NCBI GenBank assembly: GCA_013362785.1
Contig: JABFVM010000208.1
Coordinates: 1-64,000, forward strand
DNA length: 64,000 nucleotides
Direction of reading: 5' to 3'
Source of the DNA: Streptomyces sp.
GTDB lineage: Bacteria > Actinomycetota > Actinomycetes > Streptomycetales > Streptomycetaceae
Of this stretch, positions 45,677 through 64,000 are shown piece by piece. The notes beneath the pieces were generated by a model. The model was not told the DNA's origin, did not search any database, and was given only the letters and a program-made list of their open reading frames with translations. A program made the position numbers and the translations under genes. Positions within the stretch are counted from its first letter, which is position 1. The number at the start of each line of letters is the position of its first letter.

Positions 45677-46348
45677 ATGACCACGGTGACACCCGACCGG
45701 ACCGCGGCGATCGAGCAGTTCCGGCGGGACGGCTTCGCGAACGCGGGCCCGGTGCTCGCCCCGGACCTGATCGCCCGTCTCAAGGCGGGCGCCGAACGGC
45801 TCATCGCCCGCTTCACCGACGAGGGCCTGCGCTCCGACGACTACTGGAACTTCCCCGTCGAGGGCGACGATCGTCCCGTTCTCTACCGCGTGCACAACCT
45901 GGAGAAGCAGGACTGGGCCCCGGAACGGGACCTGTTGCACCGCGCGGAACTGGCGGAGCTCGCCGCCGCGTTCGTGGACGGGCCGGTCGTGCCCACCGCC
46001 TACGCACTCGTCCTCAAGGAGCCGTACCGGGCCGCGGAGGTGCCCTGGCACCGGGACCGCGTCAACGTCGGCCCGCGCACGGTCTGCAATCTGAGCATCT
46101 GCCTGGACGAGGCGGGACCGGAGAACGGATGCCTGGTGGCGGTCCCGGGATCGCATCTGCTCCCCGACGACGCCCAGGTGGCGGAGGTGCGCGGCACCGG
46201 ACCCGTGGTTCCGGTGCCGTCGCGGCAGGGCGACGTGATGGTGCACGACGTCCGGCTCGTCCACGGTTCGGGCCCGAACAGCAACGGCTCATGGCGGCGG
46301 ACCATCGTCATCGAGTACGCCGACCCGGCCGCACCGCCGGCGCCCTGA
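45677..46348 (+). CDS. PhyH-type Fe(II)/2-oxoglutarate oxygenase (orthosomycin bridge-forming type)
   Basis: 223-aa protein with the facial triad H125-x-D127 (PWHRDRVNVG) and H196 in DVRLVHGSGPNS, with R207/R208 as the 2-oxoglutarate anchor. The EAGPENGCLVAVPGSH segment is common to PhyH proteins. The length and the HGSGPN motif are like the short oxygenases (AviO1, EvdO1/O2, HygX) that oxidatively close orthoester or methylenedioxy bridges. Start at ATG 45677; a GTG four codons earlier is possible. It lies directly behind a methyltransferase gene in the same transcript. Confidence 0.87.
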   Translation: MTTVTPDRTAAIEQFRRDGFANAGPVLAPDLIARLKAGAERLIARFTDEGLRSDDYWNFPVEGDDRPVLYRVHNLEKQDWAPERDLLHRAELAELAAAFVDGPVVPTAYALVLKEPYRAAEVPWHRDRVNVGPRTVCNLSICLDEAGPENGCLVAVPGSHLLPDDAQVAEVRGTGPVVPVPSRQGDVMVHDVRLVHGSGPNSNGSWRRTIVIEYADPAAPPAP

Positions 46349-46405
46349 GCGCTGCGCCGCCGAGCGCCCGGCAACTATCGAACGGCAGGTCAGGGAGTCT
46401 TTCGG

Positions 46406-47698
46406 ATGAGGATTATGTTCACCGCCTCGAACTGGGCGGGACATTACATGTGCATGGTGCCCCTGGCCTGGGCGCTGCGCGGTGCCGGGCACGAGGTCCG
46501 GGTGGCGTGCTCGCCGTCGCAGGAACGCGGGGTCGCCTCGACCGGCCTGATGCCGGTCCCGGTGCTCGACGGGCCGGACATGATGGAGAGCGCCCGGCTG
46601 GCGTTCTACGTACAGGCCATGTACACACCGCCGCAGGCCGGCCCGCGGCCGCTGCCGCTGCACCCGTTCACCGGGCGGCCGATGGAGTCGCTCAACGACT
46701 TCGACGCCGGTGAGCTGCGCGACTTCTGGAAGAAGTCGATCGAAGCGGTGCAGCGCAGCTATGACAACGCGGTGAGCTTCGGCGACCACTGGCGGCCCGA
46801 CCTCGTGGTGCACGACATCATGGCCGTCGAGGGCGCCCTGGTCGCCGCGCTGAGGGGCGTACCGAGTGTCTACGCGTCTCCCGGGTTCATCGGGACCGTG
46901 GAGACCGAGCCGGGGCTCGACCTGGTCTCGGCGGACCCGCTGTCGTGCTTCGAGAAGTACGGCGTCGAGTGGGGCCGCGACCGGATCCAGTACGCCGTGG
47001 ACCCCTCGCCGGATGTGGCCGTGCCGCCGCTGGGCGGCGCGCTGCGGCTGCCCATGCGCTATGTGCCCTACAACGGCGCACAGGGCGTGGACCCGTGGCA
47101 GCTGGGACCGGTCCGGGGCAAACGCGTGTGCATCGTCTGGGGCAACTCGGCCTCGGGCGTCTTCGGCGCCAACGTGCCGGCGCTGCGCCACGCGGTCGAC
47201 GCGGCCGTGCAGCAGGGCGCCGAGGTGGTGCTCACGGCACCGGCGGAACAGGTGGAGGAGCTGGGAACCCTGCCGGCCGGCGTCCGGGTGCTGCGCAACT
47301 GCCCGGTGGAACTCATCCTTCCGCACTGCGACCTGCTGGTTCATCACGGCAGCGCCAACTGCTACATGAACGGCATCGTGGCCGGGATTCCGCAGCTCGC
47401 CCTCGCCCTCAACTACGACACGCTGATCTGCGGCCGCCGTATCGACCCGGCCGGCGCGACGGTGACCCTCTCCGGCCTGGAGGCCACCGCCGAGAAGGTC
47501 GAGGAGGCGCTGCGCAAGGCGCTGTTCGACCACCGCTACCGCCTGGCGGCGGAGAAGCTGCGGGACGGCGTCGAGCGGGCGCCCTCGCCCGCCGTGGTCG
47601 CCGGGCTGCTGACCCGCCTCGCGGCGGAGGGCGGGCTGACGGCGCAGGACGTCGCCGAGGCCATGGACAACGACACCGAGGCCCGGAGGGTCGCGTGA
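46406..47698 (+). CDS. GT1/GT28-type antibiotic glycosyltransferase
   Basis: 430-aa GT-B protein of the macrolide/aglycone glycosyltransferase family. The N-terminal half starts RIMFTASNWAGHYMCMVPLAWALRGAGHEV (acceptor domain). The nucleotide-sugar-binding C-terminal half has CIVWGNSASGVFG, then LPHCDLLVHHGSANCYMNGIVAGIPQLAL, where the H-H-G-S segment is the pyrophosphate-binding signature. It probably transfers a dTDP-deoxysugar. ATG 46406. It is the first gene of a long run of overlapping genes and its stop is shared with aviE2 (GTGA). Confidence 0.88.
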   Translation: MRIMFTASNWAGHYMCMVPLAWALRGAGHEVRVACSPSQERGVASTGLMPVPVLDGPDMMESARLAFYVQAMYTPPQAGPRPLPLHPFTGRPMESLNDFDAGELRDFWKKSIEAVQRSYDNAVSFGDHWRPDLVVHDIMAVEGALVAALRGVPSVYASPGFIGTVETEPGLDLVSADPLSCFEKYGVEWGRDRIQYAVDPSPDVAVPPLGGALRLPMRYVPYNGAQGVDPWQLGPVRGKRVCIVWGNSASGVFGANVPALRHAVDAAVQQGAEVVLTAPAEQVEELGTLPAGVRVLRNCPVELILPHCDLLVHHGSANCYMNGIVAGIPQLALALNYDTLICGRRIDPAGATVTLSGLEATAEKVEEALRKALFDHRYRLAAEKLRDGVERAPSPAVVAGLLTRLAAEGGLTAQDVAEAMDNDTEARRVA

Positions 47699-48708
47699 CA
47701 ATCGGGCTGAAGCAGGGACAGCGGGCCGTGGTCACCGGGGGAGCCGGCTTCATCGGCTCCCACCTGTGCGAACGGCTCATCGAGCTGGGGCTGTCGGTGA
47801 CCTGCGTGGACAACCTGTCGACCGGCAGGACCGCGAACGTCGAAGCGCTGGCGGACGAGGAGCGGTTCACGCTGCTGCGGGCCGACGTGACCGAGCCGTT
47901 CTCCGTCGACGGGCCGGTCCACCACGTCGTCCACCTGGCGTCGCCGGCGTCCCCCCTGGACTATCTGGCGCGGCCCCTGGAGACGCTGCGGGTCGGCTCG
48001 GCCGGCACCGAGAACGCGCTGCGGCTGGCGCTGGAGCACGGCGCCCGCTTCGTGGTCGCCTCCACTTCGGAGATCTACGGGGATCCCGCGCAGCACCCGC
48101 AGTCCGAGAGCTACTGGGGCAACGTCAACCCGATCGGTCCGCGTTCGGTGTACGACGAGGCCAAACGGTTCACCGAGGCGTTGACCGCCGCCTACGCGCG
48201 CACCCTCGGCGCGGACACCGGCATCGCCCGTCTGTTCAACTCCTACGGGCCGCGGATGCGCCGCGACGACGGGCGGGTGGTGCCGACCTTCATCGACCAG
48301 GCGCTCGCCGGATCGCCGCTCACCATCAACGGGACCGGTGAGCAGACCCGGTCGCTGTGCTACGTCGAGGACACGGTCCGCGGACTGCTGGCCCTGATGG
48401 ACTCCTCCTTCCCGGGCCCGGTCAACATCGGCGCGACCGGTGAGATGACCGTCCGCGAGATCGCGGAAGCGATCGCCGGACACGCGGGGGTGGAGCTGCG
48501 GACCGAGTTCCGCGCGCCCGCCGAGGACGAGCCCGGCCGGCGCTGCCCCGACATCGAGACCGCCAGGACGAAGCTGGGCTGGAAGCCCGAGGTGCCGCTC
48601 GCCGAAGGGCTCAAGCGCACCCTGCTCTGGTGGGAGAGCGCCTACCCGCAGGACACGGCCCGCGACGGCGTGAATGGTTCCAGCGAGATCAGGAGTGGAG
48701 CGGCATGA
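47695..48708 (+). CDS. aviE2: UDP-glucuronate decarboxylase (UDP-xylose synthase)
   Basis: 337-aa SDR enzyme. TGGAGFIGSHL lies near residues 14-24. The UXS-specific motif HLASPASPLDYLARPLETL is at about 79-97, followed by TSEIYGDP, and the diagnostic GNVNPIGPRSVYDEAKR near 139-155 contains catalytic Tyr and Lys. It decarboxylates UDP-glucuronate to UDP-xylose, the pentose precursor; in avilamycin work aviE2 was linked to the L-lyxose residue. GTG 47695 and both ends overlap neighbours. Confidence 0.93.
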   Translation: MTIGLKQGQRAVVTGGAGFIGSHLCERLIELGLSVTCVDNLSTGRTANVEALADEERFTLLRADVTEPFSVDGPVHHVVHLASPASPLDYLARPLETLRVGSAGTENALRLALEHGARFVVASTSEIYGDPAQHPQSESYWGNVNPIGPRSVYDEAKRFTEALTAAYARTLGADTGIARLFNSYGPRMRRDDGRVVPTFIDQALAGSPLTINGTGEQTRSLCYVEDTVRGLLALMDSSFPGPVNIGATGEMTVREIAEAIAGHAGVELRTEFRAPAEDEPGRRCPDIETARTKLGWKPEVPLAEGLKRTLLWWESAYPQDTARDGVNGSSEIRSGAA

Positions 48709-49427
48709 CAAGCGAGACACCGGTGGGCAAGGGGGTGCGCATGCCCAGGAGCGTCGAGGACCTCAACGTGGTCTGGGAATGGGACGACCCCGAGGGAATG
48801 CAGGTGCGGCTGGCGGGCTATCAGCCGCGTGACGAGTATCTGCGCGACCGTGCCGGGCGCATCGACGACATAGCCGGGGCGCTGTCCCTGGACCCGGGCA
48901 CCGATCTGTTCGAGATCGGCAGCGGCGAGGGCGTCATGGCCCGTGAGCTGGCGCCGAGGGTCAACAGCCTGCTGTGCGCGGACGTCAGCCGGTCCTTCCT
49001 GGACAAGGCCCGCGCCACCTGTGAGGGGACACCGAACGTCGCCTTCCACCACATCGAGAACGACTATCTGGCCGGACTTGAGGACGCCTCGTTCGACGCC
49101 GGGTTCGCGCTCAACGTGTTCATCCACCTGAACGCCTTCGAGGTCTACCTCTACCTGCGCGAGATCCGGCGGGTGCTGCGGCCCGGCGGCCGATTCCTGT
49201 TCAACTACCTCGACTTCGGCGAGGTCACCCGGCCGCAGTTCCACGAGTACGTCAAGAGCTACCCCGGGGCGCACCCGGTCGCCGTGAAGGGATTCATGTC
49301 CTGGCTCGGCACCGACGTGGTCCACAAGCTCGCGGCGGAGGCCGGACTGACACCGGTACCCGGGTCACTGGACGACCACGGCGGCGTCTGCTTCCTCACC
49401 CTGCGCAGGGAACAGGAGTCCGCGTGA
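48705..49427 (+). CDS. SAM-dependent methyltransferase
   Basis: 240-aa class I methyltransferase (Methyltransf_11-like). Motif I is DLFEIGSGEGVMAREL near residues 66-81, with CADVSRSFLDKAR after strand 2, motif IV FDAGFALNVFIHL and post-motif IRRVLRPGGRFLFNYLDFGE. Likely a sugar O-methyltransferase. ATG 48705 overlaps the aviE2 stop, and its own stop overlaps the small ORF at 49424 (GTGA). Confidence 0.85.
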   Translation: MTSETPVGKGVRMPRSVEDLNVVWEWDDPEGMQVRLAGYQPRDEYLRDRAGRIDDIAGALSLDPGTDLFEIGSGEGVMARELAPRVNSLLCADVSRSFLDKARATCEGTPNVAFHHIENDYLAGLEDASFDAGFALNVFIHLNAFEVYLYLREIRRVLRPGGRFLFNYLDFGEVTRPQFHEYVKSYPGAHPVAVKGFMSWLGTDVVHKLAAEAGLTPVPGSLDDHGGVCFLTLRREQESA

Positions 49428-49645
49428 GCTACCGCACTCCGGGCCGGCAAGGTCCCCAGGCCTCGTCGAACCGCCTGAACACCTGGACGCTGAGCGGGTT
49501 CTGGGGCAGCCGGACCGAGCCGGGCGGCCGGGCGGTCCGGCGCGGGTTCGGCCTGGGCGTCGACTACTTCGGCAGCGCGCACGCCTATGGCGTGGGCGGG
49601 GCCGACGCGGGACTGGCCCCGGGACACGCGGAGAGGTCGGTCTGA
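49424..49645 (+). CDS. Small hypothetical protein within the biosynthetic operon
   Basis: 73-aa ORF not recognised. It starts with a GTG overlapping the stop of the preceding methyltransferase and ends 1 bp before the ATG of the next. Third codon positions are almost all G or C, as in real Streptomyces genes. The protein is basic at first, then rich in Gly and aromatic residues (LNTWTLSGFWGSR, GFGLGVDYFGSAHAYGVGG). No signal peptide, membrane helix or metal motif is seen. It could be a small accessory protein, a remnant of a larger enzyme, or a spacer kept for translational coupling. Confidence 0.5.
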   Translation: MSYRTPGRQGPQASSNRLNTWTLSGFWGSRTEPGGRAVRRGFGLGVDYFGSAHAYGVGGADAGLAPGHAERSV

Positions 49646-49646
49646 G

Positions 49647-50378
49647 ATGACTTCCGAGGTGCCCGTACCCCAGCTCAACGACTGGTACGACCAGTTGACC
49701 GTCGAGATCATCGAGCGTGTCTGTGCCCCGGACTCCGGCTGTCTGGACATCGGTGCCGGCGGTGGCGAGATCCTCACGCACATGCGGCGGGCCGCCCCGC
49801 AGGGCCGGCACCTCGCGGTCGAGCCGTTGCCGTACTACGCCGACCAACTGCGCCGTGATTTCCCCGAAGTCACCGTGTGGCAGGCCGCCGCGGCCGACAG
49901 CAACGGCCGGGACAGCTTCGTCCACGTGGTCTCCAACCCCGGTTACAGCGGCCTGCGCCGCCGTCCGTACGACCGCGCCGACGAAACCCTGGAAGAGATC
50001 GCGGTGGACACCGTACGGCTGGACGACGTCGTCCCCGAGGACGCCCGCGTCGATCTGGTGAAGGTGGATGTGGAGGGGGGTGAGGTGGGCGCCCTGCGCG
50101 GGGCGGCGGAGCTGCTGCGCCGGCAGTCACCCGTCGTGGTCTTCGAGCACGGCGGCGATCACGCGATGCGCGACTACGGCACCACCAGCGACGAACTGTG
50201 GGCGCTGCTGGTCGACGACCTCGGCTACACGCTGTACACCCTGCCGGCCTGGCTGGCGGCGGATCCGGGACTCGACCGGGACGCCTTCGCCGCCGAGCTG
50301 CGCACGCAGTGGTACTTCGTCGCCGATCGCGCGCCCCTGTCCGCCCGTTCCCCCCGAGGAGATGTGCATCCGTCATGA
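49647..50378 (+). CDS. FkbM-family SAM-dependent methyltransferase
   Basis: 243-aa protein. Motif I is GCLDIGAGGGEILTHM near residues 31-46, LAVEPLPYYADQL follows strand 2, and the FkbM signature DLVKVDVEGGEVGALRGA is near 138-155. FkbM enzymes O-methylate hydroxyls on macrolides and sugars, so this is a good candidate for one of the sugar methyl ethers. ATG 49647 is 1 bp after the small ORF; the ribosome site GGAGAGGT lies within that ORF. The stop overlaps the oxygenase start. Confidence 0.87.
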   Translation: MTSEVPVPQLNDWYDQLTVEIIERVCAPDSGCLDIGAGGGEILTHMRRAAPQGRHLAVEPLPYYADQLRRDFPEVTVWQAAAADSNGRDSFVHVVSNPGYSGLRRRPYDRADETLEEIAVDTVRLDDVVPEDARVDLVKVDVEGGEVGALRGAAELLRRQSPVVVFEHGGDHAMRDYGTTSDELWALLVDDLGYTLYTLPAWLAADPGLDRDAFAAELRTQWYFVADRAPLSARSPRGDVHPS

Positions 50379-51316
50379 CCGATACCACTTCCCCCTCCCT
50401 CACCTCCCTCGCGGTCCCCGAATGCCATATCCGTGAGACCGGCCTGCTCCCCGAGCACGTCACCGCGTTCCGGCGGCAGGGTGTGCTGGCCGTGCGCGGC
50501 CTGCTGAGCCCCGCCGAACTGGAGTCGGTGCAAGAGGCGGCGGCCGGCCTGATCGACGACGCCTGGCGCACCCGGTCCCTGCACGACACCATCTGGACGC
50601 TGGAGCCCGACGACCCCGACGCGGCCCCGGTCCGCATCGAGTACGTCGTGGACAAGTCCCCGGTGATGGCCAGGCTCGCGGGCCATCCGCTGCTGCTGCA
50701 GGCCATGGAGGCCCTGGTCGGCCCGAACCTGATCCCGACCTGGGACAGCATGGTGTTCAAGACCACCGCGGGCGCGCCCCGGCTGGCCTGGCACCGCGAC
50801 GGCCAGATGTACGACGAGCCGGTCGCCGTCACCGGCGGCGGCCGGGTCATCGACGTGGGCGTCTACCTGGACCCCGCGCCCGAGGACAACTGCGTCTGGG
50901 CCATCCCGCAGTCCAACTACTGGCCGGACGAGCAGATCACCGAGACCGCCGGGCGGCTCAACGCCACCGAGTGGGACGCGACCGGGGCCGTACCGGCCGT
51001 GATGAACCCGGGCGACGCCCTGCTGCACAACATCCTGACGCTGCACGGCGCTCCGGCGGTGGTGGGCAAGCAGCGCAGGGTCGTCTACTACGAGTACCGG
51101 CCCGGCGAGGTGGAGCGTCACATCGGCCCGCACACGCCCGAGTACGTGGGGCTCAAGCAGCAGGTGCTGCGCTCCTGCCTGGAGCAGCGGGCCGCGTCCG
51201 CGGCGCACCGGGACGAGGAGCCCTTCGAGTACCGCCCGGTGGAGCAGTACCGGCTGTGGGACGAGTCCCCGGCCATCTCCGGCCTGCGGTTCCCGCACGA
51301 GGAGTACTGGCGGTGA
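50375..51316 (+). CDS. PhyH-type Fe(II)/2-oxoglutarate oxygenase (long form)
   Basis: 313-aa oxygenase. The iron ligands are H140-x-D142 (LAWHRDGQMYD) and H224 (NILTLHGAP), with R235 as the likely 2-oxoglutarate Arg. The VGVYLDPAPEDNCVWAIPQSN segment is typical of PhyH. At 313 aa it is longer than the other oxygenases here, with an extra C-terminal part after residue 245. In everninomicin work an EvdMO1-like long oxygenase is distinguished from the shorter EvdO1/O2, and this may be its counterpart. ATG 50375 is coupled to the FkbM gene. Confidence 0.86.
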   Translation: MTDTTSPSLTSLAVPECHIRETGLLPEHVTAFRRQGVLAVRGLLSPAELESVQEAAAGLIDDAWRTRSLHDTIWTLEPDDPDAAPVRIEYVVDKSPVMARLAGHPLLLQAMEALVGPNLIPTWDSMVFKTTAGAPRLAWHRDGQMYDEPVAVTGGGRVIDVGVYLDPAPEDNCVWAIPQSNYWPDEQITETAGRLNATEWDATGAVPAVMNPGDALLHNILTLHGAPAVVGKQRRVVYYEYRPGEVERHIGPHTPEYVGLKQQVLRSCLEQRAASAAHRDEEPFEYRPVEQYRLWDESPAISGLRFPHEEYWR

Positions 51317-52149
51317 CGAACCTGCTGAACCGTCTGCCGCTGGTGGGTGCGCTGGCCCCGGCGAGGACCCGCTCAGGCGGTGTGCCCACCGCGGAGGAGG
51401 TCATCGCCGAGCGTTACCGGGAGCGGACCGATCCGCGTCCCGGCGACTGGGCCTACGCCCATCTGCTCGACCTGCGCCTGGCGCTGGCCGAGCAGCTCGC
51501 CGGGGCGACGGGTCGCTGGCTCGACTTCGGTGCGGGCACCTCGCCGTACCGCGATCTGCTCCCCGGCGCCCGGCTGGAGACCGCCGAGATGCGCGGCGGT
51601 GAGGACCTGACGGCGGACCACGAACTCGACGAGGCCGGGCTGAGCGCCCTTCCGGACGGCACGTTCGACGGTGTGCTCTCCACCCAGGTCCTGGAGCATG
51701 TGACGGACCCGGACACGCACCTGCGAGAGGCGCTGCGGCTGCTGCGGCCGGGCGGCAGGCTGGTGCTGTCCACGCACGGCGTCTGGGAGGAGCACGGCGG
51801 CCAGGACCTGTGGCGCTGGACCGCCGACGGACTCGCGGCCCAGGCCGAGCGGGCCGGGTTCACGGTGGACCGCGCGGTCAAGCTCACCTGCGGACCCCGA
51901 GGACTGCTGCTCCTGCTGCGCCACCACGGCCGGCAGCACGGCTGGCCGGCGGGCGGTCCGGTGGGCCTGCTGCTGCGCACCCTGACCCTGGCCGACCGGC
52001 TGCGCCCGCGCATCGTCGACGACTACCTCGACCGGGTCTTCGCCGACCGGGGCCGTGTCGAGGGCCCGACCGAGCCCTTCTACCTGGACATCCTGCTGAC
52101 CGCCACCAAGCCGGGCGCACCAAAGAAGCCGGAGAGGCACGCGACATGA
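51313..52149 (+). CDS. SAM-dependent methyltransferase
   Basis: 278-aa class I methyltransferase. Motif I is WLDFGAGTSPYRDLLPG near residues 71-87, motif IV FDGVLSTQVLEHVTDPDTHL near 117-136, and LRLLRPGGRLVLSTHG follows. The C-terminal 80 residues (LLLLRHHGRQHGWPAGG then LLLRTLTLADRLRP) are more hydrophobic than in usual methyltransferases and may contact the membrane or a partner. GTG 51313 overlaps the oxygenase stop and the gene ends on the ATG of the radical SAM gene. Confidence 0.84.
   Translation: MTNLLNRLPLVGALAPARTRSGGVPTAEEVIAERYRERTDPRPGDWAYAHLLDLRLALAEQLAGATGRWLDFGAGTSPYRDLLPGARLETAEMRGGEDLTADHELDEAGLSALPDGTFDGVLSTQVLEHVTDPDTHLREALRLLRPGGRLVLSTHGVWEEHGGQDLWRWTADGLAAQAERAGFTVDRAVKLTCGPRGLLLLLRHHGRQHGWPAGGPVGLLLRTLTLADRLRPRIVDDYLDRVFADRGRVEGPTEPFYLDILLTATKPGAPKKPERHAT

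Positions 52150-53332: not shown

Positions 53333-53336
<4 letters not shown>
52146..53336 (+). CDS. aviX12: Radical SAM epimerase with N-terminal twitch-type cysteines (AviX12)
   Basis: 396-aa radical SAM enzyme. The [4Fe-4S] motif is C156-x3-C160-x2-C163 (TCNLRCVMC), preceded by FFLDIRFGN and followed by the SAM-binding YFAGGEPFMQPGH. Cysteines at 11, 19, 29, 30, 58, 100 and 103 lie before the core (TMCVLPWIHQCA, RCC, CDYCYH), a permuted twitch/SPASM-like arrangement suggesting an auxiliary cluster. In the avilamycin system AviX12 was reported to epimerise a glucose unit to the mannose unit needed for activity. The coupling to exporter genes places it late in the pathway. Confidence 0.92.
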
Positions 53337-54300
<964 letters not shown>

Positions 54301-57061: not shown

Positions 57062-57089
57062 CGCGGTCCTGATGCGAACGGGAGAGAAG

Positions 57090-58109
57090 ATGAATTCCGA
57101 GCGTCGGCCGCGGGTCATGACGATCACCGTGGGGACCAACGAGCTGCGCTGGCTGGACCGTTGTCTCGGATCCTTGCTGGCCAGCGACACCACCGGCTTC
57201 GACCTGGAGGTCTGCTACGTCGACAACGACTCGGCGGACGGCAGTGTCGAGCATGTGCGCGCGACCTATCCCGAAGTGACGATCATCCGCAACGACCGCA
57301 ATCTGGGCTTCGCCGGGGCGAACAACGTCGGCATGCGCCGGGCCCTGGAGTCCGGTGTGGATCACGTGTTCCTCGTCAACCCCGACACCTGGACGCCGCC
57401 CGGCCTGGTGCGCGGGCTCACCGAACTGGCCGAGGAATGGCCGGAGTACGGCATCGTGGGCCCGTTGCAGTACCGCTACGACCCGGACTCCACGGCGCTC
57501 GACGAGTTCAACGAGTGGACGCACACGGCCCTGTGGCTGGGCGAGCAGCACGCCTTCGCCGGCGACGGGCTCGCCCACCCCTCCTCCGCGGGCCCCCCGA
57601 AGGGACGGGCCCCGCGGACGCTGGAGCACGCCTACGTACAGGGGTCGGCGCTCTTCGCCCGGACCGCGATGCTGCGCGAGATCGGGCTGCTCGACGAGGT
57701 GCTGCACACCTACTACGAGGAGACCGACCTGTGCCGCCGGGCCCGATGGGCGGGCTGGCGGGTGGCCCTGCACCTGGACCTCGGCATCCAGCACCGGGGC
57801 GGCGGCGGGGCCGCCGTGCCCAGCACCTACAGCCGGGTCCACATGCGGCGCAACCGCTACTACTACCTCCTCACGGACGTCGACTGGCATCCGGCGAAGG
57901 CCGCCCGGCTCGCCGGACGCTGGCTCGTGGCGGACCTCCTGGGGCACAGCGTCGTCGGCCGGGTCCCGGCCGCGACGGGAGCGCGCGAGACGGTCGAGGC
58001 GCTGCGCTGGCTCGCCGACCGGGTGCCGACCATGCGCTCCCGCCGCCGGGACCACCGCGCGCTGCGCGCCCGGGGCCGGACCGGTGGGGCGAAGGGAGGG
58101 GCCCGATGA
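57090..58109 (+). CDS. Family 2 (GT-A) glycosyltransferase, rhamnosyltransferase-like
   Basis: 339-aa protein. The nucleotide-binding start is VMTITVGTNELRWLDRCLGSLLAS, then CYVDNDSADGSVEHV and NLGFAGANNVGMRRAL. The DxD-like motif is FLVNPDTW near residue 96, and YYEETDLCRRARWAGWRV supplies the catalytic base E-x-D. This layout is that of rhamnosyl- and mycolyl-galactan-type GT2 enzymes. ATG 57090 with GGGAGAG upstream is preferred over ATG 57072, which lacks a ribosome site. The stop overlaps the next glycosyltransferase. Confidence 0.86.
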   Translation: MNSERRPRVMTITVGTNELRWLDRCLGSLLASDTTGFDLEVCYVDNDSADGSVEHVRATYPEVTIIRNDRNLGFAGANNVGMRRALESGVDHVFLVNPDTWTPPGLVRGLTELAEEWPEYGIVGPLQYRYDPDSTALDEFNEWTHTALWLGEQHAFAGDGLAHPSSAGPPKGRAPRTLEHAYVQGSALFARTAMLREIGLLDEVLHTYYEETDLCRRARWAGWRVALHLDLGIQHRGGGGAAVPSTYSRVHMRRNRYYYLLTDVDWHPAKAARLAGRWLVADLLGHSVVGRVPAATGARETVEALRWLADRVPTMRSRRRDHRALRARGRTGGAKGGAR

Positions 58110-59134
58110 GGCCGTTGAAGGTCGCGCTGGTCAACATCCCGCTGCGGGTCCCCGGGAGCGATGAATGGATCTCCGTACCTCCCCAGGGGTACGGCGGCAT
58201 CCAGTGGGTCGTCGCCAACCTGATGGACGGACTGCTGGACCTCGGCCACGAGGTCTTCCTGCTGGGCGCCCCGGGCAGCCCGGCCGGGCGTCCGGGACTG
58301 ACCGTCGTACCGGCCGGCGAGCCGGAGGAGATCGAGCGGTGGCTGCGCACCGCGGATGTCGACGTGGTCCACGACCACAGCGGCGGGGTGATCGGCCCGG
58401 CCGGGCTGCCGCCGGGCACCGCGTTCATCAGCTCGCACCACTTCACCACCCGGCCGGTCAACCCCGTCGGCTGCACCTACAGTTCCCGGGCGCAGCGCGC
58501 GCACTGCGGGGGCGGCGACGCCGCGCCCGTGATTCCGATACCGGTCGACCCGGCCCGTTACCGGTCCGCCGCGGACGCCGTGGCCAAGGAGGACTTCCTG
58601 CTCTTCATGGGGCGGGTCTCGCCGCACAAGGGGGCGCTGGAAGCGGCCGCGTTCGCGCACGCCTGCGGCCGGCGCCTGGTGCTGGGCGGGCCCGTCTGGG
58701 AGCCGGACTACTTCGACGAGATCACTCGCCGGTACGGCTCGACCGTGGAGCCCATCGGTGAGGTGGGCGGCGAACGGCGCCTCGACCTGCTCGCCTCCGC
58801 ACATGCGGTGCTGGCCATGTCCCAGGCCGTCACCGGGCCGTGGGGCGGCATCTGGTGCGAGCCCGGCGCGACGGTGGTCTCCGAGGCCGCCGTGAGCGGC
58901 ACGCCGGTCGTGGGCACGGGCAACGGCTGCCTGGCGGAGATCGTGCCGTCGGTCGGCCAGGTCGTGGCGTACGGCACCGACTTCGCGCCCGACGAAGCAC
59001 GCCGGACCCTTGCGGAGCTGCCGACGGCCGGCGAGGTCCGGCGCGCGGCGGTCCGACTGTGGGGTCATGTCACCATCGCCGAACGGTATGTGGAGCAGTA
59101 CCGCAGGCTGCTGTCCGGAGTGACCTGGAAGTGA
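58106..59134 (+). CDS. Family 4 (GT-B) glycosyltransferase
   Basis: 342-aa protein. The N-terminal half begins KVALVNIPLRVPGSDEWISVPPQGYGGIQWVVANL, a GT4-type acceptor lobe with the Y-GG-I motif, then DVDVVHDHSGG. The C-terminal half has FMGRVSPHKGALEAAAFA and GGIWCEPGATVVSEAAVSGTPVVGTGNG, the E-x7-E donor site of GT4 enzymes. It is the last gene of the long coupled run (stop/start overlap with the preceding GT2 gene) and is followed by a strong hairpin. In avilamycin, aviGT4 attaches eurekanate; whether this is that gene is not decidable here. Confidence 0.87.
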   Translation: MRPLKVALVNIPLRVPGSDEWISVPPQGYGGIQWVVANLMDGLLDLGHEVFLLGAPGSPAGRPGLTVVPAGEPEEIERWLRTADVDVVHDHSGGVIGPAGLPPGTAFISSHHFTTRPVNPVGCTYSSRAQRAHCGGGDAAPVIPIPVDPARYRSAADAVAKEDFLLFMGRVSPHKGALEAAAFAHACGRRLVLGGPVWEPDYFDEITRRYGSTVEPIGEVGGERRLDLLASAHAVLAMSQAVTGPWGGIWCEPGATVVSEAAVSGTPVVGTGNGCLAEIVPSVGQVVAYGTDFAPDEARRTLAELPTAGEVRRAAVRLWGHVTIAERYVEQYRRLLSGVTWK

Positions 59135-59137
59135 GGA

Positions 59138-59175
59138 GCCGAGGTCCGCGGCGGGGGAACCCCACGGACCTCGGC
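59138..59175. terminator. Terminator at the end of the long biosynthetic operon
   Basis: An 11-bp perfect stem (GCCGAGGTCCG / CGGACCTCGGC) with an inner GGGG/CCCC pairing lies between the two convergent genes. It starts 4 bp after the glycosyltransferase stop. Confidence 0.82.
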
Positions 59176-59182
59176 ACGTCTT

Positions 59183-59230
59183 CAGCGCTTGTCCCAGCGC
59201 CTGTCTCAGTGCCTGTCTCAGTGCTTGTCG
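59183..59230. repeat. Four tandem 12-bp units spanning the 3' end of the oxygenase gene
   Basis: CAGCGCTTGTCC, CAGCGCCTGTCT, CAGTGCCTGTCT and CAGTGCTTGTCG follow each other. On the minus strand each unit reads GAC-ARG-CRC-TGA/TGG. The unit therefore carries the last three codons and the stop codon of the oxygenase gene, copied in frame behind the true stop at 59218. Confidence 0.85.
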
Positions 59231-59970
59231 AGCCAGGGGCGCGGCTCGGGGTCGGCGACCTCTTCGGCCGCCCCCATGAAGACCAGCACATACGCCCGGC
59301 GGGTCTGGTCGGTGAGGTTGGGGCCCGCGTAGTGCGGAGCGCGCACGTCGTGCACCACGGCCTCGCCCGGGGCGAGCGGGACGGGCACCCCGGCGGCCGG
59401 GTCCACCGCGTCGGTCACCAGCCCCCGGATGCGGTCGTCGTCGTCGATGTGCCGGTGCGGCAGTACGGGGCCCAGGTGGGCGCCGGGCAGGTAGTGCAGG
59501 CAGCCGCTGTCCACCGTGGCCTCGTCCAGCGGGGTCCAGATGCTGAGCCCGGGCCGGCGCCAGCGCGGGTCCATGTAGCCCTCGTCCTGGTGCCAGGGCG
59601 TTTCCGCGCCGTAGTTCGGCGGCTTCAGAATGGCATGCCCGTAGAAGTCGAGTTCGTCCTCCGGGATGTCCAGGAGCTGCGCGGCGATCGCCCGGCACCG
59701 CTTGAAATGCGCGCTCTCGACCAGCTCGGGTTCGAATTTCTCCGGGCGCACGATCTGCGGCAGCCGGGCCGGCGCGTCGGAATCCTGGCGGGCGGCGATG
59801 TCGAAGTAGTCGCCCGACGTGAAGTCGGCGTGCTCGGAGAACAGGCGATCGTAGACTCCGCGCAGCCACTCCAGCTCCGTGTCGTCCGCGAGCCGGGGCA
59901 GCGATGCGAACCCGTCACTCCGGAAGGCTGCGCGGCACTCCTCGTCGATCACAGTTTCCACGGACCCCAT
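59218..59970 (-). CDS. PhyH-type Fe(II)/2-oxoglutarate oxygenase
   Basis: 250-aa oxygenase. The metal triad is H127-x-D129 (TPWHQDEGYMD) and H213 (VRAPHYAGPNLTDQTRR), with R224 as the 2-oxoglutarate anchor. The DSGCLHYLPGAHLGPVLPHRHIDDDDR region is typical of PhyH. The H-x-A-G-P-N pattern resembles the H-x-x-G-P-N of the oxygenase at 45677, so both may be bridge formers of the AviO/EvdO group. ATG 59970 has AAAGGAG upstream. It is transcribed alone, divergent from the HAD gene, and ends in a 12-bp tandem repeat. Confidence 0.87.
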   Translation of the reverse strand: MGSVETVIDEECRAAFRSDGFASLPRLADDTELEWLRGVYDRLFSEHADFTSGDYFDIAARQDSDAPARLPQIVRPEKFEPELVESAHFKRCRAIAAQLLDIPEDELDFYGHAILKPPNYGAETPWHQDEGYMDPRWRRPGLSIWTPLDEATVDSGCLHYLPGAHLGPVLPHRHIDDDDRIRGLVTDAVDPAAGVPVPLAPGEAVVHDVRAPHYAGPNLTDQTRRAYVLVFMGAAEEVADPEPRPWLDKH

Positions 59971-60058
59971 ACGGTGGCTCCTTTCGTCAGGTATTCGAGG
60001 AGTACGTTACGTTCCTTCCCGGAATATGGCATCAGCTTTAGTCGGAGAATAGTGAATT

Positions 60059-60068
60059 GACTAGACTC
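60059..60068 (+). promoter_or_regulatory. GACTAGACTC element upstream of the HAD/SDR genes
   Basis: This 10-mer recurs exactly, oriented toward the gene, upstream of the halogenase (63469-63478, minus strand). Its core CTAGACTC also lies upstream of the glycosyltransferase at 27277 (27364-27371, minus strand). It contains TAGACT, which fits a sigma-70-type -10 box, so it may be a promoter element of cluster genes. Confidence 0.4.
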
Positions 60069-60168
60069 TTGCCGACAGCGGTGATTCTCCGGTCGCCGGG
60101 CCGCGATCCCAATGATGCGCGTGCAATACTCTCGGCGCGACGTATGTGAAATACGGGAGCGGGTTGCT

Positions 60169-60894
60169 ATGACTGGACACAGTGCGATTGCCTTGGATGT
60201 CGGAGGCGTCATCTACTACGACGAGCCTTTCGAACTGGCTTGGCTTCAGGGGACCTTCGACCTAGCGGTCACCGGTGATCCGAGTATCACCCTCCGAGAT
60301 TTCATCGAGGACACCGAGCGTTTCTATCTGGGCGAGAACGCGCCCGCGGAGCGGCCGAGCATTCTCGGTTCGCCGGCGGCCGACGAGAGCTGGGTCCGGA
60401 TTCGACGGGCCTGGCGGGAACTGGCCCAGGAGATTCCCGGTTCTATTGCGGCGGTGACCGGGCTCGCCCTCGAAATGCCGACGGCCGTGGTCGCCAACCA
60501 GCCGCCCGAGTGCGCCGACGTGCTCGCCGACTGGGGGCTGACCGCCGTTCTGAAGACGGTCGTCCTCGACTGCTTCGAGGGGGTCGCCAAGCCCGATCCA
60601 CGGCTGCTGGGCCTCGCCCTGACGCGGCTGGGGATCGCACCCGCCGAGCTGCTGGTGGTCGGCAACCGCGTCGACCACGACGTGGCACCTGCCCTTTCCC
60701 TGGGCTGTCCGGCGGTGTTCGTGCTGCAGGAGGACGGCTACCGCACGCCCTCGGGCGTCCACGCGGACATCGCCCGGGCCTACCGCGCGCTGCGCGCGAT
60801 CCGAACCGTGCCCCCGGCCGACGACGACGTGCCGCGGGTCGCCTCCCTTGCCGACCTGGCCGCGTCGCCCCTGGCGCGCGCGGGTGCGCTGTGA
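60169..60894 (+). CDS. HAD-superfamily phosphatase-like hydrolase
   Basis: 241-aa HAD protein. Motif I is AIALDVGGVIYYD with nucleophile D10; the residue two after it is Gly12, not the Asp usual for phosphatases. Motif III Lys is in GVAKPDPRLLGLAL and motif IV VGNRVDHDVAPALSLG. HAD proteins with the D-x-G-x-V form include sugar-phosphate phosphatases such as YihX. The avilamycin cluster has a putative phosphatase gene (aviP), so a sugar-phosphate dephosphorylation role is reasonable. ATG 60169 with GGGAGC upstream. The stop overlaps the following SDR gene. Confidence 0.8.
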   Translation: MTGHSAIALDVGGVIYYDEPFELAWLQGTFDLAVTGDPSITLRDFIEDTERFYLGENAPAERPSILGSPAADESWVRIRRAWRELAQEIPGSIAAVTGLALEMPTAVVANQPPECADVLADWGLTAVLKTVVLDCFEGVAKPDPRLLGLALTRLGIAPAELLVVGNRVDHDVAPALSLGCPAVFVLQEDGYRTPSGVHADIARAYRALRAIRTVPPADDDVPRVASLADLAASPLARAGAL

Positions 60895-61823
60895 CCACGG
60901 CGGACCCGCTGCCCGGGGACCGCACGGCGGTGATCGGGGCGACGGGCTTCATCGGCTCCCGGCTGATGGCCGGTCTCACCGCCGACGGTGCGCGAGCCCC
61001 GGCCGCCTTCAACCGGGCGTTCCCGCCGGTGGCCGGTGGCCGTGCCGCGCCTGGACTGGCGGAGGCCGACATCGTCTACTTCCTGGCGGCCGGTCTGAGC
61101 CCGGTCCTCGCCGAACGACGCCCCGACCTGGTGGAGGCCGAACGCAGGCTGCTGGTCGAGGTGCTGGAGGCGCTGGCCGCACGCGGACGCCGCCCGGTGT
61201 TCGTACTGGCCAGCTCCGGCGGGGCCGTCTACGCGCCCGAGGTCGAACCGCCGTACCGGGAGACCACCCCGACCCGGCCCGACTCCGTCTACGGGCACGC
61301 CAAGCTCCGCCTGGAACGCGAACTGTTCCAGCGCTCGGACGCCGTCCGTGCCGTGGTGGCGCGGTTGAGCAATGTCTACGGCCCCGACCAGCGCGCCGTA
61401 CGCGGGTTCGGCGTGCTGCCGCACTGGCTGACGGCGGCCGCCCGGGGCGAGCCCGTGCGGGTGTTCGGCGATCCGCATGTGGTCCGGGACTATGTCCACG
61501 TCGACGACGTCACCCGGTTCCTGCTCGCGCTGCGCGGCCGGATCGGCGGCGGCCCGCTGCCCGACGTGGTGAACGTCGGCTCGGGTGTGCCCACTTCACT
61601 GAGCGGCCTGCTGGACATCGTGTCCGGCGTGACCGGCGGCTCCGTCGCGGTGCGCTGGGAGCGGGGACGGTCCTTCGACCGGCGGGGCAACTGGCTGGAT
61701 GTCGCGAGGGCCCGCGCAGAACTCGACTGGCGGGCCGCCGTCCCCCTGGCCGAGGGGGTCCGGCAGTGCTGGGAGCGCGTGCTCGACGACGCCGGCCGGG
61801 CCCCCTCCGCCTCGGCGCGCTAG
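60891..61823 (+). CDS. NAD-dependent epimerase/dehydratase family protein
   Basis: 310-aa extended SDR protein. VIGATGFIGSR lies near residues 14-24, VLASSGGAVYAPE near 103-115, and catalytic Tyr and Lys are in SVYGHAK. RLSNVYGPDQRAVRGFGVLPHWL and VFGDPHVVRDYVHVDDV are nucleotide-sugar epimerase motifs. GTG 60891 overlaps the HAD stop, so the two are co-translated and perhaps act on one sugar. A bidirectional terminator separates it from the convergent halogenase gene. Confidence 0.83.
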   Translation: MTTADPLPGDRTAVIGATGFIGSRLMAGLTADGARAPAAFNRAFPPVAGGRAAPGLAEADIVYFLAAGLSPVLAERRPDLVEAERRLLVEVLEALAARGRRPVFVLASSGGAVYAPEVEPPYRETTPTRPDSVYGHAKLRLERELFQRSDAVRAVVARLSNVYGPDQRAVRGFGVLPHWLTAAARGEPVRVFGDPHVVRDYVHVDDVTRFLLALRGRIGGGPLPDVVNVGSGVPTSLSGLLDIVSGVTGGSVAVRWERGRSFDRRGNWLDVARARAELDWRAAVPLAEGVRQCWERVLDDAGRAPSASAR

Positions 61824-61860
61824 CGGGCGATCCGGGCGATCCGTGCGCGCCGGGCATGAC

Positions 61861-61901
61861 TTCGGGCTTCAGCCTCGCAACCACGAGGCGTGAAGCCCGA
61901 A
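61861..61901. terminator. Bidirectional terminator between SDR and halogenase genes
   Basis: A 17-bp stem, TTCGGGCTTCAGCCTCG with the complementary strand CGAGGC-G-TGAAGCCCGAA (one bulged G), around a 6-base loop, between two convergent genes. Confidence 0.88.
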
Positions 61902-61914
61902 ATCGATTCTCCGG

Positions 61915-63372
61915 TCAGGGCCTGGCCCGGCCGATTCCCAGGGTCGGGCTGGTCACCAGGTAGAGCCCCGTGGCGGGGTCGTAGAGGTCGTGGGCGTCCA
62001 TCTTGCCGGGAGCCTCGCTGACCGGTGCGCTCGGAGTCCGGGCCGCCGCCATCAGGCGGGCGTTCTCGGCCGCGGCGAGCAACTGACGGACGGAGTTGTC
62101 CTCCGGCAGGGCACCGGCGTCGGCGTGCGCCTGGTGGGCGCGGTCCTCGTGTGTTCCGGTGACGGCGTCATGGATGTCGGCGATCCCCGCGACCAGCTCG
62201 GCGAACGCCACCGCGCCGTCGACCTGCTTGTACTCGGTCGTGGCGCGCTCCGGGGTCATCGCGTCGGCGAGGCCGAAGTAGGCGGCCTTGCCGGCCTGTT
62301 GCTGGTAGACACCGGACACCAGGGTGAACAGCCGCTGGTAGGCGTTGCGGTAGAGCGACTCGTAGAACGCCCCGGCCTCGTCCTCCGTGACGTCCTCGTT
62401 CACCGTGGCGAGCACGGACGTCGCGGCCAGCATCCCGCTGTAGAGCGCCAGGTGGACGCCGGTGGACAGCAGCGGGTCGAGGAAGCAGGCGGCGTCGCCG
62501 GCGAGGTAGTAGCCGGGGCCGTGGAAGCTGTCGGCGACGTAGGAGAAGTCCTGCTCCACCCGCACGCCCGGCTGGTAGACGCCGTTCGCCATGAGATCGC
62601 GCACCGTCGGGGATTCCTCGACCAGCGCGGCCAGCATCGCCTCCAGGTCGTCGTGTTCCCGGCGGCGCTCCAGGAACCGGTCCTGGTGGCAGACGAAACC
62701 GACGCTGTACCGGTCTCCGCGCAGCGGGATCACCCAGTACCAGCCGTCCTTGGAGCTGACGACGTTGATGCCCCCGGTGGGCGAGCTGGGCAGCAGGGAG
62801 CCGCCCTCCCAGTAGCCCCAGATCGCGACATTGCGGAAGATCTCGTGCGGCTGGCGGTTCTTCAGGTGCTTGGAGACGACGCCGGCCCGCCCTGAGGCGT
62901 CGATGACGTAGTCGAACTCCTCACTGACCAGTTCACCGGTGTCGGGATCCAGCCACTCGGCGCCCTTCGCGCGGTCGCCGTCGAACAGCACGCGCTTGAC
63001 GGTGACGCCCTGGGTGACGTCGGCGCCCTGCTTGACGGCGTTGTTCAGGAGCACATGGTCGAAGTCGTCGCGGTCGACCTGCCAGGAGCGGACGTCCGGC
63101 CCGAAGATCTTCGGCCAGTCGATCGCCCAGTCCTCGTTGCCCCAGCGCAGCAGCACGCCGTTCTTGACCGTGTAACCGCGGGAGTCGACCTCCTCCAGCG
63201 CGCCGACCAGGTCGATGATGGTGCGGCACGAGGAGGCGATCGACTCACCGATGTGGTAGCGCGGGAACGTCTCCCGTTCCAGTAGCTTGACGGACATGCC
63301 GGCCTTGCTGAGCAAGGAGGCTGCCGTGGACCCGGCCGGCCCACCGCCGATCACGAGCACTTTTTTGGACAT
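61915..63372 (-). CDS. aviH: FAD-dependent halogenase (AviH type)
   Basis: 485-aa flavin halogenase. The FAD-binding GGGPAGSTAA is at residues 9-18, LLERETFPRYHIGES follows, and the halogenase signature W-x-W-x-I-P is at 211-216 (GWYWVIPL). The second FAD motif is GYYLAGDAACFLDPLLSTGVH. The family chlorinates phenolic substrates bound to carrier proteins or free; here the target should be the orsellinate ring, giving the dichlorinated cap. Start ATG 63372 with GGGGAG upstream. Its 5' region carries 13-bp and TCTAG repeats. Confidence 0.94.
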   Translation of the reverse strand: MSKKVLVIGGGPAGSTAASLLSKAGMSVKLLERETFPRYHIGESIASSCRTIIDLVGALEEVDSRGYTVKNGVLLRWGNEDWAIDWPKIFGPDVRSWQVDRDDFDHVLLNNAVKQGADVTQGVTVKRVLFDGDRAKGAEWLDPDTGELVSEEFDYVIDASGRAGVVSKHLKNRQPHEIFRNVAIWGYWEGGSLLPSSPTGGINVVSSKDGWYWVIPLRGDRYSVGFVCHQDRFLERRREHDDLEAMLAALVEESPTVRDLMANGVYQPGVRVEQDFSYVADSFHGPGYYLAGDAACFLDPLLSTGVHLALYSGMLAATSVLATVNEDVTEDEAGAFYESLYRNAYQRLFTLVSGVYQQQAGKAAYFGLADAMTPERATTEYKQVDGAVAFAELVAGIADIHDAVTGTHEDRAHQAHADAGALPEDNSVRQLLAAAENARLMAAARTPSAPVSEAPGKMDAHDLYDPATGLYLVTSPTLGIGRARP

Positions 63373-63392
63373 CGAGCTCCCCACTGGCAATT

Positions 63393-63430
63393 CAGGATTC
63401 ACGTGCAGGATTCACGTGCAGGATTCATGG
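63393..63430. repeat. 13-bp tandem repeats upstream of the halogenase gene
   Basis: CAGGATTCACGTG occurs twice in tandem followed by CAGGATTCATGG, starting 21 bp upstream of the aviH start codon. The unit contains the dyad CACGTG. The array lies in the 5' untranslated region or promoter. Confidence 0.8.
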
Positions 63431-63471
63431 CGACTAATCCGCCGTGAGTAATTGCGAAATACTTCTCCGAG

Positions 63472-63502
63472 TCTAGTCGCGACGCTCTAGTGGAATCTCT
63501 AG
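63472..63502. repeat. Three TCTAG boxes in the halogenase/oxygenase divergent region
   Basis: TCTAG occurs at 63472, 63486 and 63498 (spacing 14 and 12 bp). The CTAG tetramer is scarce in high-GC Streptomyces DNA, so three in 31 bp stand out. They lie about 100-130 bp upstream of aviH and 80-110 bp upstream of the divergent oxygenase gene. No gene lies between 63373 and 63580. Confidence 0.6.
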
Positions 63503-63580
63503 TTCTTCTTCGCGTACGGCTATGTAGCATCCGCTTCGGGATTAGTGCCGAGCTCGGCGATCGTCCTGCAAAGGAGCGTG

Positions 63581-64000
63581 ATGGGAACCCGCGTACTGAC
63601 CGACGCGCAGCTTGAGAGCTTCGTCTCCGACGGCTTCATCCACCTGCCGGGTGCGTTCCCCGGGGAGCTCGCCGAGGAGGCGCGCGCCCTGCTGTGGCGG
63701 CAACTGGCCATGGACCCCGACGACCCGGCCACCTGGACGCGGGAAGTGGTCCGGCTGGGGGTGCGTGACGACGACGTGTTCATACGCGCCGCCAACACCC
63801 CGGTGCTGCACGCCGCATACGACCAGCTCGCCGGAGAGGGCCGCTGGCAGCCGCTGACCCAGGTCGGCACGTTCCCGGTGCGGTTCCCCGTGTCGAAGCG
63901 GCCGGAGGAGACCGAGGACTACGGCTGGCACATCGACGCCAGCTTCCTCGCCGAGGACGCGGACGCCGACCGCGACTGGAGCGGCGAGCTGGATGTGATT
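63581..64000 (+). CDS. PhyH-type Fe(II)/2-oxoglutarate oxygenase (partial, cut by right edge)
   Basis: First 140 codons of a fourth oxygenase. SFVSDGFIHLPGAFPGE is the PhyH start (the enzyme F-x-x-D-G-F motif). The first two iron ligands are H117 and D119 in YGWHIDASF. The second His and the 2-oxoglutarate Arg lie beyond the window. ATG 63581 has AAGGAG 6 bp upstream. It is divergent from aviH across a repeat-rich 208-bp region. The VFIRAANTPVLHAAYDQL and FPVRFPVSKRPEE segments differ from the other three oxygenases, so it may serve a different step such as hydroxylation. Confidence 0.83.
   Translation, partial: MGTRVLTDAQLESFVSDGFIHLPGAFPGELAEEARALLWRQLAMDPDDPATWTREVVRLGVRDDDVFIRAANTPVLHAAYDQLAGEGRWQPLTQVGTFPVRFPVSKRPEETEDYGWHIDASFLAEDADADRDWSGELDVI

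What the first reader, a model, noticed from the sequence alone, without database searches (positions are those of the whole stretch)
45677..63999. Four PhyH oxygenases of different size and motif in one cluster
Genes at 45677 (223 aa), 50375 (313 aa), 59218 (250 aa) and 63581 (partial) all keep H-x-D, and the first three the distal His and Arg. Orthosomycins need two orthoesters plus a methylenedioxy bridge, three oxidative closures. A fourth enzyme implies an extra oxidation. The 45677 and 59218 proteins share an H-x-x-G-P-N motif after the distal His that the 313-aa one lacks.
Basis: partly seen in the sequence, partly recalled or inferred. Interest (0 to 1): 0.6.

Follow-up and report, generated by a model that had tools for sequence, protein, structure and literature searches.

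The report
Fourth oxygenase in orthosomycin antibiotic clusters
Three of the four oxygenase genes are close relatives of enzymes already linked to the unusual ring closures of avilamycin and everninomicin antibiotics, while the fourth is a different, uncharacterised enzyme that was present in each of the ten such gene clusters compared and so probably carries out a step that has not been assigned.

Summary
Four PhyH-type Fe(II)/2OG oxygenase genes lie within 19 kb of an orthosomycin cluster; the genome has eight PF05721 hits in all.

Three are known enzymes: 45677-46348 is the AviO1/EvdMO1-oxygenase ortholog (204/223 identical to 4xaa), 50375-51316 is EvdO1 (219/300 to 4xbz), 59218-59970 is EvdO2 (166/241 to 4xab). 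They match the three expected oxidative closures.

The fourth, cut by the window edge, is whole on the contig (283 aa, 63581-64432) with intact H117-x-D119, H229 and R240. It is not AviO/EvdO-type: no AviO/EvdO entry among its PDB hits, a separate branch in trees. Yet it is in 10 of 10 clusters compared, including one whose EvdO1, EvdO2 and EvdMO1-oxygenase match the PDB chains 100% over the compared parts. Its loop after H-x-D is 34-38 residues against 16-22 in measured outside relatives. It sits beside an orsellinate-type O-methyltransferase in 9/10. A variant cluster (G481) without close matches to the orsellinate PKS, halogenase or methyltransferase keeps it, so its substrate is probably the sugar core.

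Its reaction is unproven. Leading guess (about 0.3): C-2 hydroxylation of ring D (2-deoxy-D-evalose to D-evalose).

The parts
45677..46348 (+). P0001, AviO1 / oxygenase half of EvdMO1 ortholog (223 aa)
   Evidence: 204/223 identical to 4xaa, 156/207 to the 6ec3 oxygenase part; tree group support 100
44965..45672 (+). Methyltransferase that is fused to the P0001 ortholog in five of the other clusters (EvdMO1 arrangement); a separate gene here
   Evidence: open in one frame in G002, G666, G746, G501, G515; split but adjacent in G000, G001, G053, G003; unlinked in G481; Methyltransf_11/25/31
50375..51316 (+). P0002, EvdO1 ortholog (313 aa); start overlaps the end of the upstream FkbM-type methyltransferase by 4 bases
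   Evidence: 219/300 identical to 4xbz; tree group support 100
49647..50378 (+). FkbM-family methyltransferase directly upstream of P0002 (start codon not settled)
   Evidence: PF05050 70.2 bits
59218..59970 (-). P0003, EvdO2 ortholog (250 aa)
   Evidence: 166/241 identical to 4xab; tree group support 100
63581..64000 (+). P0004, fourth PhyH oxygenase; runs on to contig position 64432 (283 aa whole)
   Evidence: PF05721 28.8 bits; orthologs in 10/10 clusters; followed after 2 bases by an O-methyltransferase gene at contig 64435-65487
61915..63402 (-). Flavin-dependent halogenase-like protein (AviH-like), divergent from P0004
   Evidence: best NCBIfam match is CmlS halogenase, 232.6 bits, below its cut-off of 900; conserved in the other clusters except G481
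37691..41527 (+). Type I PKS, KS-AT-DH-ACP (AviM-like, orsellinate)
   Evidence: Pfam domains; orthologs 61-91% in the other clusters except G481
25381..26274 (+). AviRb-like SpoU rRNA methyltransferase; immediately upstream of the P0004 ortholog in five clusters of the Micromonospora family
   Evidence: PF00588/PF22655; maps
27411..28181 (-). AviRa rRNA methyltransferase
   Evidence: PF11599 250.3 bits

Best explanation
The region is an avilamycin/everninomicin-type orthosomycin cluster. P0001, P0002 and P0003 are the AviO1/EvdMO1, EvdO1 and EvdO2 enzymes; by the literature such enzymes close the two orthoesters and the methylenedioxy bridge (shown: orthology; inferred: which closes which). 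P0001 most likely closes the methylenedioxy bridge, because it is fused to a methyltransferase in five of ten clusters. P0004 is a separate Fe(II)/2OG oxygenase, apparently recruited from a PhyH family common in Streptomyces. It carries a cluster-specific longer loop after H-x-D and acts on the sugar core, not on the aromatic acid. It most likely hydroxylates a C-H bond instead of closing a ring. [quoted passage not shown]
For: Orthology of P0001-3. P0004 is in 10/10 genomes with EvdO2 orthologs; its nine orthologs are 65-95% identical, the level of P0001-3. It is in G666, whose EvdO1, EvdO2 and EvdMO1-oxygenase match the PDB chains at 300/300, 243/243 and 208/208 compared residues. dN/dS 0.17-0.23 in the three Streptomyces pairs, 0.07-0.35 over six pairs. 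Metal triad intact in 10/10. H-x-D to SR.R spacing 34-38 in 9 of 10 cluster copies (one not measured) against 16-22 in 25 of 27 outside homologs (two not measured). G481: best genome-wide matches to the orsellinate PKS and halogenase are 44% and 28%, against 67-72% and 71-76% in G003 and G666 searched alongside; best O-methyltransferase match in 109 kb is 28%; yet P0004 is kept. D-evalose is in everninomicin B, flambamycin and 13-384-1 (PMC12961483, passages); avilamycin A has 2-deoxy-D-evalose (PMC8234114, section).
Against: P0004 is universal in this set, but the ring D hydroxyl is not: avilamycin A lacks it, and the Tu57 cluster could not be read to see whether P0004 is intact there. D-evalose could instead come from a GDP-mannose-type route (a conserved GDP-mannose 4,6-dehydratase homolog lies close by, contig 65697-66671) without any hydroxylase. 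P0004 pairs with the aromatic-type O-methyltransferase in 9/10 clusters, which by itself points to the aromatic unit. I have no biochemical data and no usable structure model (mean pLDDT 35.5). In G481, the very cluster used to argue for the sugar core, the 2OG-binding Arg is replaced by Lys. The recruitment from the outside family depends on rooting: outside homologs are one side of a branch and not. The ten clusters include two close pairs.
Confidence: 0.55

Rival explanations
1. P0004 is a 2OG-dependent epimerase (as SnoN is in nogalamycin) acting on a sugar common to all members, for example in making L-lyxose of ring G from a xylose precursor.
For: Presence in all ten clusters matches a universal sugar better than it matches the variable ring D hydroxyl. 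The route to L-lyxose is open (PMC10338323, introduction and discussion passages). A PhyH-type epimerase, SnoN, is in the PDB (5ep9, listed); its reaction in nogalamycin is recalled.
Against: The evd cluster has seven other SDR enzymes of unassigned function that could do this (PMC10338323 passage). P0004 does not match SnoN among PDB hits up to E 10 (best hit a leucine hydroxylase, E 0.052).
Confidence: 0.15
2. P0004 performs one of the three ring closures, and one of P0001-P0003 does something else.
For: It is as widespread and as conserved as the other three. The passages I read report structures, not in vitro ring closure by any of them.
Against: P0001-3 are orthologs of the enzymes that the literature links to the closures (PMC8234114). 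P0004 lies in another family.
Confidence: 0.12
3. P0004 acts on the dichloroisoeverninic acid unit, together with the O-methyltransferase next to it.
For: Adjacent to an O-methyltransferase related to DtpM (E 5e-87) and CalO6 (E 1.1e-85) in 9/10 clusters.
Against: G481 shows no close match to that module and keeps P0004. The aromatic unit needs no oxygen beyond the PKS product (established chemistry).
Confidence: 0.07
4. P0004 belongs to self-protection, for example by acting on a modified nucleoside or a ribosomal target, since it neighbours AviRb or AviRa.
For: AviRb is directly upstream in 5 and AviRa directly downstream in 1 of the 7 clusters of the Micromonospora family; in the seventh AviRa follows the O-methyltransferase. 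PhyH-type enzymes that demethylate 2'-O-methyl nucleosides are known (PMC12709175, abstract and passages).
Against: In the three Streptomyces clusters AviRa and AviRb lie more than 30 kb from P0004. P0004 shows no match to PHYHD1. The nucleoside demethylases did not act on RNA (PMC12709175, abstract and passages).
Confidence: 0.06

Closest known systems
AviO1 (PDB 4xaa) and the oxygenase domain of EvdMO1 (6ec3)
   Same: P0001 is the ortholog: 91.5% and 75.4% identity, same triad and H-x-x-G-P-N
   Different: In the window the methyltransferase and oxygenase are two genes 4 bases apart, not a fusion as in EvdMO1
EvdO1 (4xbz)
   Same: P0002 is the ortholog, 73% over 300 residues, with H-G-A-P-A-V at the distal His
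   Different: Ordinary sequence divergence only
EvdO2 (4xab, 4xac)
   Same: P0003 is the ortholog, 69% over 241 residues
   Different: Ordinary sequence divergence only
Uncharacterised PhyH family of Streptomyces (no name; outside clusters)
   Same: P0004 is 47-55% identical to the 27 best outside homologs; shared GWHx(D/E), CHPFL(V/I)H and PR(F/L) motifs
   Different: Cluster copies have a 34-38 residue stretch after H-x-D (16-22 outside) and HTP(V/I)(A/T)N at the distal His; 21 of 27 outside copies have H-x-E, not H-x-D; no consistent neighbours found
GriE leucine hydroxylase (5nch; the name GriE is recalled, the PDB table says leucine hydroxylase)
   Same: Best solved relative of the P0004 family profile, E 8.4e-5
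   Different: Very distant; substrate not comparable

Membership tests
AviO/EvdO orthosomycin oxygenases | Full-length orthology to a crystallised member | tested here: met
   P0001, P0002, P0003:
AviO/EvdO orthosomycin oxygenases (P0004) | Full-length orthology to a crystallised member | tested here: not met
   P0004: no AviO/EvdO entry among PDB hits up to E 10 or, with the family profile, up to E 1
AviO/EvdO orthosomycin oxygenases | H-x-D...H facial triad and 2OG-binding Arg | tested here: met
   All four in the window; P0004 orthologs: triad 10/10, Arg 9/10, Lys in G481
AviO/EvdO orthosomycin oxygenases (P0004) | Groups with P0001-P0003 against other PhyH proteins | tested here: not met
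   AU p 3e-5 with the ten P0004 rows but not their outside kin (the absence of the kin makes this test easy to fail), p 0.009 with the kin included; 63 of the 80 rows used, long branches and a quick search, so supportive only
AviO/EvdO orthosomycin oxygenases | P0001, P0002 and P0003 form one exclusive clade | tested here: inconclusive
   AU p 0.025 against it, with long branches
AviO/EvdO/HygX group | Grouping with HygX | not tested
   No HygX sequence was obtained; it did not appear among the PDB matches shown (one search listed 60 of 70)
AviO/EvdO orthosomycin oxygenases | Oxidative ring closure on the oligosaccharide | not testable with these tools
   Needs enzyme assay or deletion strains
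PhyH (PF05721) | Score over the curated cut-off | tested here: met
   P0004 28.8 bits, cut-off 22; 16/16 members of its family alignment match at E 0.1 or better
Avilamycin/everninomicin-type cluster | Orsellinate-type PKS, halogenase, AviRa, AviRb, radical SAM enzyme, TPP-enzyme pair, deoxysugar genes | tested here: met
   Pfam and NCBIfam matches; orthologs in the compared clusters

The most novel reading that the evidence does not exclude
All avilamycin/everninomicin-type orthosomycins need a fourth, unassigned oxidative step on the sugar core, done by a PhyH subfamily that is not of the ring-closing AviO/EvdO type; it is either a hydroxylase of a 2-deoxy sugar inside the oligosaccharide or a 2OG-dependent sugar epimerase.
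Probability: 0.45. Interest if true: 0.6.

Novelty: new variant of a known kind. Interest (0 to 1): 0.45.

Why it matters
Orthosomycins bind a ribosomal site different from those of the ribosome-targeting agents now in the clinic (PMC8234114, section), and their biosynthesis is being mapped in order to make better analogs. The literature I could read names three oxygenases in each pathway (aviO1-aviO3; EvdO1, EvdO2, EvdMO1). A fourth that is in all ten clusters compared, under purifying selection and altered near its metal-binding motif means that the pathway probably has an unassigned step which one gene deletion could reveal. It also corrects the simple reading that the fourth is another ring-closing enzyme of the same group.

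Tried and rejected
Chance or bystander: rejected, because P0004 is in each of the ten clusters compared and is as conserved as P0001-3.

Aromatic-unit role: considered because of the O-methyltransferase neighbour, then down-weighted because G481 keeps P0004 without close matches to that module.

Role from outside homologs: 20 contexts fetched; my gene caller found the homolog in 17 of 20. No neighbour family was shared by more than 8 contexts. Pfam on 10 of the neighbours gave two cellulases, SDR, aldo-keto reductase, GH15, DoxX, TetR, peptidase, glycosyltransferase and FAD oxidoreductase; no functional lead.

Structure: AlphaFold2 on the S. curacoi ortholog as a single sequence failed (pLDDT 35.5), so no fold search was made.

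Tu57 avilamycin cluster: no new cluster (383 Streptomyces, partly the same genomes) or (61 genomes, the window's own among them). Search of 394 genomes of the class with P0002 found only the window's own genome; all these are samples of larger groups.

Trees: 80 rows = 40 cluster oxygenases, 23 of 27 outside P0004 homologs (four dropped for length or stops), 5 PDB sequences and 12 of 15 other PhyH loci tried (three gave no usable protein). Searches used 63 of these 80 (two long-branch rows and 15 outside homologs left out).

Literature: McCulloch 2015 and the EvdMO1 structure paper are not held. EvdO3, AviO4 and EvdO4 occur in no held paper (whole-word search); 'not in print' rests only on that library.

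Gene-model slips: searches failed on wrong coordinates (stop codons); 18 and 19 were repeated with corrected coordinates (43, 44), the others were replaced.
Full report
WHAT IS THERE. The window is the first 64 kb of an 84.8-kb contig (C468) of a draft genome in the genus of S. curacoi (G319, same genus), that is Streptomyces. The four genes are as described. The fourth is cut by the window but whole on the contig: 283 aa, positions 63581-64432, with a good ribosome-binding site. A Methyltransf_2 O-methyltransferase gene follows after 2 bases, closest among solved structures to DtpM and CalO6. The surroundings hold a KS-AT-DH-ACP PKS, a KSIII-like protein, a halogenase-like protein, AviRa, AviRb, a radical SAM enzyme, an ABC transporter, a TPP-dependent enzyme pair, glycosyltransferases and deoxysugar genes: an avilamycin/everninomicin-type orthosomycin cluster. 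The Avi names are by comparison with the gene list of PMC8234114 and recall.

THREE ARE KNOWN ENZYMES. phmmer against the PDB gives 4xaa (E 2.1e-139) for P0001, 4xbz EvdO1 (1.1e-152) for P0002 and 4xab EvdO2 (5.4e-115) for P0003. Identities are 204/223, 219/300 and 166/241. The PDB table names 4xaa only 'Putative oxygenase' and 6ec3 'Methyltransferase domain-containing protein'; that they are AviO1 of S. viridochromogenes Tu57 and EvdMO1 is recalled. PMC8234114 says that AviO1 was among the enzymes of that structural study. In a tree of 80 PhyH proteins each of the three groups with its PDB member has SH-aLRT 100. P0001 and its upstream methyltransferase are open in one frame in five clusters (the EvdMO1 arrangement), split but adjacent in four including this one, and unlinked in G481.

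THE FOURTH IS DIFFERENT. P0004 scores only 28.8 bits against PF05721 (cut-off 22), matches no NCBIfam model at E 0.001, and its best PDB hit is a leucine hydroxylase at E 0.052 alone and 8.4e-5 with a family profile. AU tests reject one clade of all four, with p 3e-5 (P0004 without its outside kin) and p 0.009 (kin included, 11 other PhyH proteins as the rest). P0001-P0003 as one exclusive clade is also disfavoured (p 0.025). These trees have long branches and a quick search.

IT IS A CORE CLUSTER GENE. Clusters were found with the EvdO2-type protein P0003: three named loci (S. curacoi DSM 40107, Catenuloplanes japonicus NRRL B-16061, Micromonospora sp. ATCC 39149), 3 of 392 Streptomyces at 88% identity or more (8 further genomes matched at only 35-42% and were not counted), and 7 of 350 genomes of the family of the Micromonospora strain. 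After removing overlaps there are ten genomes: G000, G001 (taken as the same as G319 from identical coordinates), G053, G003, G002, G666, G501, G515, G746, G481. P0004 orthologs are in 10 of 10, within about 31 kb of P0003, and P0001-P0003 are in 10 of 10. G501/G515 and G666/G746 are close pairs, so the independent number is smaller. G666 is 100% identical to the PDB EvdO1, EvdO2 and EvdMO1 oxygenase over the compared parts, so it is the everninomicin D (evd) producer or very near it; its cluster has P0004 at L129:8482-9318. S. curacoi AviO1 is 222/223 identical to 4xaa.

CONSERVATION AND REMODELLING. P0004 identity across clusters (65-95%) is like that of P0001-3 (66-94%). dN/dS is 0.17-0.23 for the three Streptomyces pairs, 0.07-0.35 over all six pairs; P0001-3 range from 0.02 to 0.50. 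Metal triad 10/10; 2OG-binding Arg 9/10 (Lys in G481). Homologs exist outside such clusters: 113 of 392 Streptomyces genomes had some match at E 1e-5, three of them the cluster copies; the 27 best outside ones are 47-55% identical (BLAST). The spacing from H-x-D to the SR.R motif is 34-38 in 9 of 10 cluster copies (one unmeasured) and 16-22 in 25 of 27 outside copies (two unmeasured). Whether P0004 homologs occur outside clusters in the Micromonospora family was not searched beyond the positives; G481 has a second, 46-47% match elsewhere.

NEIGHBOURS AND A NATURAL EXPERIMENT. The O-methyltransferase is adjacent to P0004 in 9 of 10 clusters; AviRb is directly upstream in five. The exception is G481: in 109 kb it has no close match to the orsellinate PKS, KSIII, halogenase or O-methyltransferase (best 27-28% for PKS and O-methyltransferase), and genome-wide the best PKS and halogenase matches are 44% and 28%, against 67-72% and 71-76% in G003 and G666 in the same searches. 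The O-methyltransferase was not searched genome-wide. G481 keeps all four oxygenases. So P0004 most likely serves the sugar core.

MECHANISM. Shown: orthology, intact ligands, presence in all ten, purifying selection, longer loop, persistence without the orsellinate module. Inferred: Fe(II)/2OG chemistry; P0001-3 make the three closures (two orthoesters and a methylenedioxy bridge, as described in PMC8234114, passages and section). Speculative: P0004 hydroxylates C-2 of ring D. D-evalose occurs in everninomicin B, flambamycin and 13-384-1 (PMC12961483, passages), while avilamycin A has 2-deoxy-D-evalose (PMC8234114). That ATCC 39149 makes 13,384-1, and that everninomicins B and D differ by this oxygen, is recalled. 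Against it: P0004 is in every cluster and avilamycin A lacks the oxygen; the Tu57 gene could not be read. Rivals (epimerase, closure, aromatic unit, self-protection) are scored separately.

KNOWN OR NEW. The three orthologs are ordinary. PMC8234114 lists aviO1-aviO3 only; EvdO3, EvdO4 and AviO4 are in no held paper. The primary evd and avi papers were not readable, so a specialist may already have this gene under another name.

Noticed in passing
G481 C1:5741000-5792000 (L133, L138, L140): An orthosomycin-type cluster without close matches to the orsellinate PKS, halogenase or O-methyltransferase. It instead carries two ketosynthase genes (type II PKS-like pair), a FabA-like dehydratase, a KSIII and an aromatic amino acid lyase, which suggests an orthosomycin with a different, lyase-primed acyl cap. 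PMC10338323 names stacking of the flanking aromatic rings as a potential mechanism of everninomicin A aggregation, so such a cap could be of interest.
   Followed up: partly
window 44965-46348 and orthologs: The methyltransferase-oxygenase pair is open in one frame in G002, G666, G746, G501 and G515, split but adjacent in G000, G001, G053 and G003, and unlinked in G481.
   Followed up: yes
L040-L066 (Streptomyces homologs of P0004): Most of the best non-cluster homologs of P0004 have H-x-E, not H-x-D, at the iron site (21 of 27); function and neighbours unknown.
   Followed up: no
window 26246-27289 (-): A 347-aa protein with no Pfam match, found at 57-92% identity in 9 of 9 other orthosomycin clusters.
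   Followed up: no
G163:C61:188741-189457 (L070): A PhyH protein 42% identical to P0003, the best Streptomyces match below the orthologs and its neighbour in the tree; context not examined.
   Followed up: no
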